Below are positions 1 through 1,312 of a stretch of DNA of 39,208 bases, in pieces. The stretch is from Caldifarciminota bacterium (GTDB taxonomy: Bacteria > Hydrothermota > Tepidihabitantia > SM23-42): NCBI GenBank assembly GCA_020355325.1, contig CP070664.1:1560139-1599346 (forward strand). The letters are read 5' to 3'. The notes below the pieces were generated by a model. That model saw only the letters and a program-made list of their open reading frames with translations, searched no databases and was not told the DNA's origin. Made by a program: the position numbers and the translations under genes. Numbering within the stretch: position 1 is the stretch's first letter; the number at the start of each line of letters is the position of its first letter.

Positions 1-139
1 AGCCGAGTATTTGTTTCCCTATAATTTCTCGAGCAGGTCCAGAAGGCAGCATATCGACTAACTCTATAATATCACACACAACTTCTAGTGCTTTTTGCCA
101 TACTTTTAGATCTTTATAATCAGTAACCTTGTTGTTGAT
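1..139 (-). CDS. S23-type four-helix-bundle protein, 5' part only
   Basis: The minus-strand frame enters from the window edge and reads V-T-D-Y-K-D-L-K-V-W-Q-K-A-L-E near its N-terminus, the hallmark opening of the 23S rRNA intervening-sequence (S23) four-helix-bundle family. These are small proteins of unknown molecular role, found either inside 23S rRNA insertions or free-standing as here. Only about 46 codons are visible. The frame has no ATG, GTG or TTG before the conserved region: an in-frame TAA lies at 169-167. A Shine-Dalgarno-like GGAGA is followed after 6 nt by an ATC codon at 139-137, which I use as a provisional start. The gene may use a rare ATC start, may have lost its start codon, or may be frameshifted against an overlapping short frame. 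Family call fairly sure, start unsure. Confidence 0.65.
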   Translation of the reverse strand, partial: MNNKVTDYKDLKVWQKALEVVCDIIELVDMLPSGPAREIIGKQILG

Positions 140-150
140 TGCTGTTCTCC

Positions 151-285
151 TCTCGATAATTATTATTTAATTCTGTTCCCTGTTTCCTGTATCCTATTCC
201 CTGCGACATATTTCCTTCCCTCAATAATTCCCTTCTCGATAATTATTATTTAATTCTATTCCCTGTTTCCTGTATCCTATTCCCT
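151..285. repeat. Two copies of a 52-bp direct repeat
   Basis: Positions 151-202 and 234-285 are direct copies 83 bp apart with one mismatch (G175 versus A258). Read on the minus strand each copy carries the AGG-rich phrase GGATACAGGAAACAGGGAA followed by an AT-rich part. The copies fill the space between the 3' end of tRNA-Ser and the ribosome binding site of the S23-type gene. They resemble in style the ATCAG repeat at 25233-25269. Function unknown. Confidence 0.85.
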
Positions 286-290
286 AAACA

Positions 291-374
291 CGGAGGGCGA
301 GGGATTCGAACCCCCATGGGATTGCTCCCGGCGGATTTCAAGTCCGCTGCCTTACCAGTTAGGACTAGCCCTCC
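291..374 (-). tRNA. tRNA-Ser(UGA)
   Basis: Minus-strand cloverleaf of 84 nt. The acceptor stem GGAGGGC pairs with GCCCTCC (292-298 and 368-374), with discriminator G at 291 as expected for serine. The anticodon stem GCGGA/TCCGC encloses the loop CTTGAAA, giving anticodon TGA. A long class II variable arm and a T arm with GGTTCGAAT follow. CCA is not encoded. It probably shares the strong promoter at 630-657 with the structured RNA candidate upstream. Confidence 0.95.
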
Positions 375-375
375 T

Positions 376-623
376 AACTCAAGGGGGAGACCCCCTTGTT
401 TCCAAAAAGTCTGCCTAAGACGGCAATACTTTTTGGAGGCCTCGAAACCCCCCTGCCCGTAGGTCGACAACGCCGAGCAGCAGGGTTTATGCCGTGTTGA
501 CTCGGTCCTGTTTTTCAACATGCCGATAATCATACGTCACTTTTGGCTATCGCCAACAAGAGAAGAGCCTTAAGAAAACTTCGTTTTCTTTATATATAGC
601 TTATAGCCTTTGGCGATGCTATT
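376..623 (-). ncRNA. Unassigned structured RNA candidate upstream of tRNA-Ser
   Basis: This stretch of about 245 nt has no credible gene, but it starts at the expected start site of a perfect-consensus promoter (630-657) and is dense in inverted repeats. From its 5' end: ATCGCCAA/TTGGCGAT (610-617 with 549-556) enclosing AAGAAAAC-ttc-GTTTTCTT (572-590); a GC-rich middle (about 440-515) with competing pairings such as CCGAG/CTCGG; a long hairpin 402-436 (CCAAAAAGT/ACTTTTTGG, inner TGCC/GGCA); and a GC hairpin 380-398 (CAAGGGGG, 3-nt loop, CCCCCTTG) just before tRNA-Ser. I could not match it to SRP RNA, 6S, tmRNA or RNase P RNA. It may be a separate ncRNA or a long 5' part of the tRNA-Ser precursor. 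Confidence 0.45.
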
Positions 624-629
624 CAGTTA

Positions 630-657
630 ATTATAACTATTTTAATATATTTGTCAA
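630..657 (-). promoter_or_regulatory. Perfect-consensus sigma-70-type promoter
   Basis: On the minus strand TTGACA (657-652) and TATAAT (635-630) are separated by 16 nt, matching both consensus hexamers exactly. The predicted start near 623 lies about 250 nt upstream of tRNA-Ser, so the structured interval would be transcribed first. Confidence 0.75.
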
Positions 658-668
658 TTTTAATCTAC

Positions 669-696
669 TTGACTGACTTTGAATATTCACTATAAT
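669..696 (+). promoter_or_regulatory. Sigma-70-type promoter, divergent
   Basis: TTGACT (669-674), 16 nt, TATAAT (691-696). The predicted start is near 703. It points toward tRNA-Gln at 890 and is divergent from the promoter at 630-657. The roughly 190 nt between start and tRNA hold no gene. Confidence 0.6.
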
Positions 697-702
697 AACA
701 GT

Positions 703-889
703 AAGGTTTTCGTTAGTCGTTATATGGCATCTCTCTCGACATCTTTCTCAATGTTGAATTTCGAAATGAGACAGAGTCTCGAGACGAGATGGCTGCCCGT
801 ATCGTTTGTCGTCTTTCGTTTTTCGACCGTATAACGATGCCGTGTGACGATACGAGCCGCTACACCGTATAACGAACAACGATCTCTAA
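703..889. other. Gene-free interval with 7-nt-period and direct repeats
   Basis: No gene is seen. TCG recurs exactly every 7 nt at 802, 809, 816 and 823. ACCGTATAACGA occurs twice, at 826-837 and 864-875. A 10-bp palindrome GTCTCGAGAC sits at 774-783. If the promoter at 669-696 is used, this stretch becomes the 5' leader of the tRNA-Gln transcript. Confidence 0.6.
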
Positions 890-960
890 TGGGGGATCGT
901 CTAATGGTAGGACGGTTGGCTCTGGACCAATTGATCGGGGTTCGAATCCCTGTCCCCCAG
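890..960 (+). tRNA. tRNA-Gln(CUG)
   Basis: Cloverleaf of 71 nt beginning TGGGGGA, typical of glutamine tRNAs, and closing with TCCCCCA plus discriminator G (953-960). The anticodon stem GTTGG/CCAAT encloses CTCTGGA, giving anticodon CTG. The T loop is GGTTCGAAT. CCA is not encoded. Confidence 0.95.
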
Positions 961-1162
961 TTCATTCTAAAAATCCTAAATTCCAAGTTCTAAATCCTGA
1001 AGAAATTCAAATGAGCGAATACAAAAAAATAATTCAGAATTTGAAAATTTGATTATTGTCCCGCAGAAAATAAGATTCTCGATATTTCTAACAACAGGTT
1101 TACTTTTGTGAAATATCGGAATTTGAGTATTTAGGATTTCGAAATTAGAGTCGTGTCAAATG
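961..1162. repeat. AT-rich intergenic element with nested inverted repeats
   Basis: No gene is seen between tRNA-Gln and tRNA-Leu. AAATCCTAAA (971-980) is mirrored by TTTAGGATTT (1130-1139), and inside it CGATATTTC (1080-1088) is mirrored by GAAATATCG (1110-1118). The left end also repeats CTAAATCCT-like words. This could be a small non-coding mobile element remnant or a degenerate intergenic repeat. Confidence 0.45.
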
Positions 1163-1244
1163 TGCCGGAGGCGGGATTTGAACCCGCATGCCCGAAGGCC
1201 TACGCCCCTCAAACGTATGTGTCTGCCAATTCCACCACCCCGGC
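1163..1244 (-). tRNA. tRNA-Leu(GAG)
   Basis: Minus-strand cloverleaf of 82 nt with class II variable arm. The acceptor GCCGGGG pairs with CTCCGGC (one G-U), with discriminator A at 1163. The anticodon stem TACGT/GCGTA encloses TTGAGGG, giving anticodon GAG. The T loop is GGTTCAAAT. CCA is not encoded. Confidence 0.95.
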
Positions 1245-1284
1245 ATTATCCAAAAAATTTTTTTTACGTGGACTAACCTAGATA

Positions 1285-1312
1285 ACTATATGTAAAATTG
1301 ATAGATTGTCAA
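1285..1312 (-). promoter_or_regulatory. Promoter of tRNA-Leu
   Basis: Minus strand: TTGACA (1312-1307), 16 nt, TATAGT (1290-1285). The predicted start near 1278 is about 34 nt upstream of the mature tRNA 5' end. Confidence 0.65.

What the first reader, a model, noticed from the sequence alone, without database searches (positions are those of the whole stretch)
376..657. Strongly promoted, highly structured RNA of unknown class in front of tRNA-Ser
A promoter matching both consensus hexamers exactly (TTGACA-N16-TATAAT, 657-630, minus) fires into about 245 nt with no gene but with at least four inverted repeats, including two near-perfect long hairpins (402-436 and 380-398). The 5' part offers two mutually exclusive pairings: ATCGCCAA (minus strand, 617-610) with TTGGCGAT (556-549), or the neighbouring GGCTAT with ATAGCC. 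This suggests a switchable fold. It lacks the diagnostic cores of SRP, tmRNA, 6S and RNase P RNAs that I know. It could be a new ncRNA family, or a very divergent housekeeping RNA co-transcribed with tRNA-Ser.
Basis: partly seen in the sequence, partly recalled or inferred. Interest (0 to 1): 0.72.

Follow-up and report, generated by a model that had tools for sequence, protein, structure and literature searches.

The report
Structured RNA repeat invading tRNA leaders
The folded RNA in front of this tRNA-Ser gene is one copy of a previously unlisted family of short repeats that, in one group of uncultured WOR-3 bacteria, keeps turning up between the promoter and the first base of many different tRNA genes, so it would be made as part of the tRNA precursor; it behaves like a mobile element that hitchhikes on tRNA genes.

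Summary
In detail: a perfect promoter (657-630, minus), no gene, and a fold far more stable than shuffles (z -5.8). The interpretation changes. The promoter is the ordinary tRNA-Ser promoter: relatives have the same TTGACA-16-TATAAT box 12-92 nt from the same tRNA and no such RNA between; here the distance is 255 nt. The extra RNA (about 544-380, minus) is an insertion belonging to a dispersed family. A covariance model finds 12 copies in this genome and 71 in 19 of 27 genomes of its order (WOR-3/Stahlbacteria), and none in the other 120 genomes searched in the phylum. Half the copies end 0-6 nt before the first base of a tRNA (Ser, Ala, Val, Arg, His). Helices covary strongly (22 of 27 pairs). 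At orthologous tRNA-Ala loci the element is present in 8 genomes, decayed in 2, absent in 13. Copies cluster by genome, not by tRNA. Nothing matches Rfam; this genome has no reverse transcriptase and no TnpB. Best reading: a non-autonomous mobile element encoding a structured RNA, transcribed as a tRNA leader. The proposed 5' 'switch' lies outside the family and has no comparative support. How it moves, and what the RNA does, are unknown.

The parts
630..657 (-). tRNA-Ser promoter, TTGACA (657-652) and TATAAT (635-630), 16-nt spacer
   Evidence: 12/12 match; same promoter type in front of the orthologous tRNA-Ser in G003, G008, G013, G023, G024, G026 without the RNA
557..623 (-). first part of the transcribed leader (start near 623 inferred from the -10 box); not part of the repeat family
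   Evidence: no match elsewhere in own genome or relatives
543..556 (-). P0 hairpin TTGGC-GATA-GCCAA; a short GC hairpin at this place recurs in most full-length copies with different sequence
   Evidence: read from copies; predicted
380..544 (-). the repeat element proper (covariance model R1, 164 positions)
   Evidence: 159.5 bits, E 9e-40; 71 copies in 19 genomes
534..539 (-). helix P1, 5' strand UGACGU
   Evidence: all 6 pairs have two-sided changes in the family, 74% of cells paired
498..503 (-). helix P1, 3' strand GAGUCA
491..498 (-). conserved core AACACGGC
   Evidence: near-invariant columns in alignment A2
451..485 (-). P2 region: CCCUGC (485-480) with GCAGGG (456-451)
   Evidence: predicted fold; register varies among copies, not scored for covariation
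401..437 (-). P3, long hairpin with a bulged A
   Evidence: 12 of 14 pairs change on both sides across copies
380..398 (-). P4 hairpin (CAAGGGGG-UCU-CCCCCUUG), 3' end of the element next to the tRNA
   Evidence: 98% of cells paired
291..374 (-). tRNA-Ser(UGA), the only copy found in this genome
   Evidence: ARAGORN, Rfam, single match in G000

Best explanation
Window 544-380 (minus) is a copy of a short, non-autonomous mobile element that encodes a structured RNA and inserts at the ends of tRNA genes, most often exactly between a tRNA promoter and the first base of the tRNA. Here it lengthened the leader of the single-copy tRNA-Ser(UGA) gene, so the tRNA promoter would transcribe promoter - leader - element RNA - tRNA. 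RNase P, which makes the tRNA 5' end, would cut at or within a few nt of the P4 hairpin and release the element RNA. Shown by comparison: family, fold covariation, position, presence/absence at orthologous loci, clustering by genome. Inferred: transcription, release by RNase P, and active transposition by a protein in trans. Not known: which protein moves it, and whether the RNA does anything for the host.
For: 12 copies in this genome and 71 in 19 of 27 genomes of the order, none in the other 120 genomes searched in the phylum. 36 of 71 end within 0-6 nt of the 5' end of a tRNA of ten kinds. Orthologous tRNA-Ser(UGA): -10 box to tRNA is 12, 84 or 92 nt without the element and 255 with it; tRNA-Arg: 19-21 nt without (G026, G008), 185-273 with. 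Orthologous tRNA-Ala(UGC): present in 8, decayed in 2, absent in 13 genomes. 11 of 35 copies have a promoter of at least 11/12 upstream of the element, 0.05 expected. Covariation 0.266 against 0.108 +/- 0.006 shuffled and 0.02-0.07 slid; 22 of 27 pairs change on both sides. Helix mismatches favour G.U over A.C 87:21, as expected if the sense strand folds. In the tree, copies group by genome (27 changes, shuffled mean 37, minimum 33) and genus (22 against 34), not by tRNA (33 against 35). Similarity between copies at different tRNAs can stop at the tRNA boundary, e.g. tRNA-His against antisense tRNA-Leu in G025.
Against: No target-site duplication common to all copies, no transposase tied to it, and 5' ends vary. 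Some Arg-tRNA copies share flanks as well, so recombination or segmental duplication also spreads it. Some copies lie elsewhere: beside a conserved GCACCC motif, before a protein gene, or antisense at tRNA 3' ends. No transcript data are available here.
Confidence: 0.75

Rival explanations
1. The RNA is a cis-acting tRNA leader that controls transcription or processing of the tRNA, for instance by attenuation at P4 or by holding the 5' end for RNase P.
For: Lies in the presumed transcribed leader, points toward the tRNA in most copies, P3/P4 sit next to the tRNA 5' end, and the fold is conserved.
Against: Absent from the same tRNA loci in most relatives, found at ten kinds of tRNA with clustering by genome, not by tRNA, also antisense at tRNA 3' ends and away from tRNAs. 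P4 has only about three U and precedes a single-copy tRNA, so strong termination is unlikely.
Confidence: 0.12
2. The RNA, released from pre-tRNA by RNase P, is a trans-acting small RNA of the host (a sponge or regulator), and the copies are a multi-gene family.
For: Conserved fold and core sequence in many copies; tRNA precursor fragments are known to act as small RNAs in other bacteria (own knowledge).
Against: No fixed locus, not found in 8 of 27 genomes of the order, 5' halves differ between lineages.
Confidence: 0.1
3. The element is an attachment-site or accessory part of tyrosine-integrase elements that use tRNA genes, and the leader copies are remnants left by such elements.
For: Nine copies sit in a conserved frame (AATTCTGTC..TATCGATAGAT - RNA - GCACCC..TGGCACAAAT), several behind a tRNA 5' half broken at the anticodon loop and one next to a Phage_integrase gene; integrase genes whose ends carry the same arm-like repeats abut tRNAs in G011 and G023.
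Against: Most copies are not near an integrase; leader copies abut the tRNA first base, whereas the integrase frame breaks tRNAs at the anticodon loop.
Confidence: 0.2
4. It is a divergent housekeeping RNA (SRP, 6S, tmRNA, RNase P).
For: Size and strong promoter only.
Against: Multi-copy, dispersed, absent at this locus in relatives, no Rfam match in eleven copies even at permissive E-values.
Confidence: 0.01

Closest known systems
REP/REPIN elements with RAYT transposases
   Same: Short, non-autonomous, palindrome-rich interspersed repeats of bacterial intergenic regions that evolve within genomes (PMC3116915); Y1 transposases occur in 26 of 27 genomes here.
   Different: REPs are 20-40 nt and are sorted by a GTAG or CGTC tag at one end (PMC3733652); this is about 165 nt with several hairpins, a conserved core, strong covariation and a position at tRNA ends; no copy lies within the flanks of the 30 RAYT loci examined.
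Rickettsia palindromic elements
   Same: Palindromic elements of similar size that insert into genes (own knowledge).
   Different: Those are known mainly inside protein-coding frames (own knowledge); this family abuts tRNA ends. No sequence comparison was made.
E. coli tyrT spacer repeats (RtT RNA, RF00391)
   Same: Repeats of about 178 bp in a tRNA transcript that carry a piece of the tRNA (own knowledge); some copies here carry tRNA nt 1-14.
   Different: tyrT repeats follow one tRNA locus; these precede many tRNAs, are dispersed, and give no RtT match in Rfam.
tRNA-integrating tyrosine recombinase elements
   Same: tRNA genes as target; a subset of copies lies at such an element's end.
   Different: The repeat encodes nothing and stops at the tRNA end rather than inside the tRNA.

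Membership tests
Any of 4227 Rfam 15 families (incl. T-box, HEARO, RtT, 6S, SRP, tmRNA, RNase P) | Covariance-model match at the curated score | tested here: not met
   Window 200-760 at E up to 10 and ten other loci with copies at E up to 2 give only tRNA and weak overlaps with the tRNA
REP/REPIN | 20-40 nt palindrome with a GTAG- or CGTC-type tag at one end | tested here: not met
   Element of ~165 nt; P3 is preceded by GAGGY or AAGGC in the copies
REP/REPIN | Copies flank a RAYT gene | tested here: not met
   No R1 match in the 30 RAYT loci fetched; not all RAYT loci of the order were checked
Mobile element (non-autonomous, broad sense) | Presence/absence at orthologous sites and dispersal within genomes | tested here: met
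Mobile element (non-autonomous, broad sense) | Target-site duplication or defined termini | tested here: inconclusive
   3' end fixed at tRNA ends; 5' end variable; direct repeat of tRNA nt 1-14 only in a few, tandem-like copies
Retron, group II intron or other RT-mobilised RNA | Reverse transcriptase in the genome | tested here: not met
   PF00078: 0 in G000, 3 of 27 genomes, no R1 match near them
TnpB omega RNA | TnpB gene in the genome | tested here: not met
   PF07282: none in 26 of 27 genomes
IscB omega RNA (HEARO) | IscB gene; HEARO fold | tested here: inconclusive
   No HEARO match in Rfam scans; IscB gene not searched

The most novel reading that the evidence does not exclude
A selfish RNA family that parasitises tRNA maturation: it inserts exactly at tRNA gene ends, borrows the tRNA promoter for transcription and RNase P for its 3' end, and the released folded RNA (not just its DNA) is what the mobility machinery, possibly an integrase element's own, recognises.
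Probability: 0.2. Interest if true: 0.88.

Novelty: new variant of a known kind. Interest (0 to 1): 0.62.

Why it matters
Bacterial short interspersed repeats are usually seen as DNA palindromes without a fixed address. A family with a covarying fold that repeatedly settles between promoter and tRNA would be a bacterial counterpart of eukaryotic elements that target tRNA genes. It would show that single-copy tRNA genes tolerate leaders of 200 nt or more, and it gives a concrete question: what recognises tRNA ends in these bacteria.

Tried and rejected
Housekeeping RNA: multi-copy and polymorphic. TnpB omega RNA, retron or group II intron: partner proteins absent. RAYT-linked REP: no copy within the RAYT loci examined. 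General target-site duplication of tRNA nt 1-14: seen in G000 Val and Arg(ACG), by eye in G017 Arg(TCG), and as a tandem repeat in G000 at 641 kb; at chance elsewhere. Members outside WOR-3: the pattern scans of genome and viral contigs returned look-alike hairpins with no tRNA next to them. 5' switch: region not in the family. Intrinsic terminator at P4: not called by the scan. Protein-coding: the 95-aa frame 246-533 crosses the tRNA and has no Pfam match. Literature searches found no description of this family (open-access text only). Folding-energy asymmetry between the strands: none.

Full report
What is there. On the minus strand a perfect sigma-70-type promoter (657-630) is followed by 255 nt without a gene and then tRNA-Ser(UGA) at 374-291. 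The stretch folds much better than its shuffles (z -5.8). No Rfam family other than tRNA matches convincingly, even at E up to 10.

It is a repeat. Used as a DNA query, the 282 nt find eleven places in the same 2.85-Mb chromosome (itself included) and more in relatives; the shared part begins near window 549 and ends at the tRNA. Reading the copies shows one layout: a short 5' hairpin (P0), AAAAGUGRCGU, a variable stretch, AACACGGC, a P2 region, GGGGGAUU, a long hairpin P3, and P4 (AAGGGGG..CCCCCUUU), directly followed by a tRNA. I built covariance model R1 from 13 copies. It finds 71 copies in 19 of 27 genomes of the order, 12 of them in this genome, and nothing in the other 120 of 147 genomes searched in the phylum (the larger search used stricter filters). 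Record titles from a pattern scan name the lineage: candidate division WOR-3 / Stahlbacteria / TA06. Pattern matches in other phyla and in viral contigs are look-alike hairpins.

The fold is under selection. On 72 aligned copies 89% of cells pair, 22 of 27 pairs change on both sides, and the covariation score is 0.266 against 0.108 +/- 0.006 for shuffles and at most 0.07 for slid partners. The alignment was fitted to the model, which favours it, but P3 and P4 align with little ambiguity. Mismatches of the G.U type outnumber A.C 87 to 21, as expected if this strand folds as RNA; folding single-stranded DNA could give a similar bias. Folding energies alone do not tell the strands apart.

It sits in tRNA leaders. 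36 of 71 copies end 0-6 nt before a tRNA: Ala 8, Val 6, Arg of five anticodons 16, Ser 4, His 2. Others are upstream tandem copies, abut the 3' end of tRNA-Leu or tRNA-Tyr in antisense, precede tRNA halves, or lie in a conserved GCACCC frame. In 11 of 35 copies a promoter of at least 11/12 with a 16-nt spacer lies upstream of the element; 0.05 would be expected.

It comes and goes. At the window's own locus, relatives keep the perfect promoter but place it 12 nt (G023, G024, G026), 84 nt (G008, G013) or 92 nt (G003) from the same tRNA-Ser; with the element the distance is 255 nt (the leaders of the remaining tRNA-Ser loci were not read one by one, but R1 finds no copy at any of them). tRNA-Arg loci behave alike: 19-21 nt without, 185-273 nt with. 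Behind one conserved gene, tRNA-Ala(UGC) has the element in 8 genomes, remnants in 2 and nothing in 13. In a tree of one copy per site, copies group by genome (27 changes against a shuffled mean of 37) and genus (22 against 34), not by tRNA (33 against 35). Paired copies can be alike up to the tRNA boundary and not beyond (His against antisense Leu, Ala against Ser), while some Arg pairs share flanks too. So the element spreads within genomes, by insertion-like events and by duplication.

How it may work. Inserted between promoter and tRNA, it becomes the leader of a single-copy tRNA, is transcribed with it, and would be cut off by RNase P at the mature tRNA end. This step is inferred. The mover is unknown: no reverse transcriptase or TnpB in this genome, Y1 transposases are common but no copy lies near those examined, and a subset of copies lies at the end of tyrosine-integrase elements that break tRNAs at the anticodon loop. 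Abutment in antisense at tRNA 3' ends suggests that the site is chosen at DNA level, not by RNase P.

ATCGCCAA (617-610) lies in the part of the leader that no other copy shares, so the competing pairing is a property of this one leader and may be chance.

Limits. No transcript data; most relatives are fragmented metagenome assemblies; a few stretches are withheld as N; the P2 helix was not scored; the literature search covers open-access text only.

Noticed in passing
window 669-960: tRNA-Gln(CUG) also has a near-perfect promoter (TTGACT-16-TATAAT, 669-696) and a leader of 193 nt that holds two copies of ACCGTATAACGA; long leaders filled with other repeats seem common for tRNAs here.
   Followed up: partly
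window 1162-1312: tRNA-Leu(GAG) has TTGACA-16-TATAGT 40 nt upstream; all three tRNAs of the window share the 16-nt spacer promoter type.
   Followed up: no
window 154-290: Downstream of tRNA-Ser a stretch of about 58 nt (CTCGATAATTATTATTTAATTCT..CCCTGTTTCCTGTATCC) is repeated at 95% identity; similar CCTGTATCC/GGATACAGG palindromes stand where P3-P4 would be in some copies (L008, L013).
   Followed up: partly
L142, L144, L149, L189, L215: tRNA leaders carry other long palindromes (GGTTGGGGTTGGGAAGCTGG..AGCATCCCAACCTCAACC; CTAGATACT..CTAGCATCTAG): further unnamed repeat families in tRNA leaders.
   Followed up: no
L047 780-1500, L234: Tyrosine recombinase genes end less than 100 nt before an intact tRNA, with TGGCACAAATNTGGCACA repeats at the gene end: possibly integrative elements that restore the tRNA 5' rather than 3' half.
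   Followed up: partly
L066, L082, L038, L069, L045: tRNA 5' halves broken at the anticodon loop, several beside the RNA; G021 has a broken tRNA-Arg(UCU) where G018 is intact.
   Followed up: partly
L018 1200-1750 (reverse strand of the locus): One copy with a perfect TTGACA-16-TATAAT box upstream lies before a protein gene instead of a tRNA, with other sequence inserted in its P4.
   Followed up: no
window 1-140, minus: Partial frame that reads like a four-helix-bundle (23S rRNA intervening-sequence type) protein; seen by eye only.
   Followed up: no
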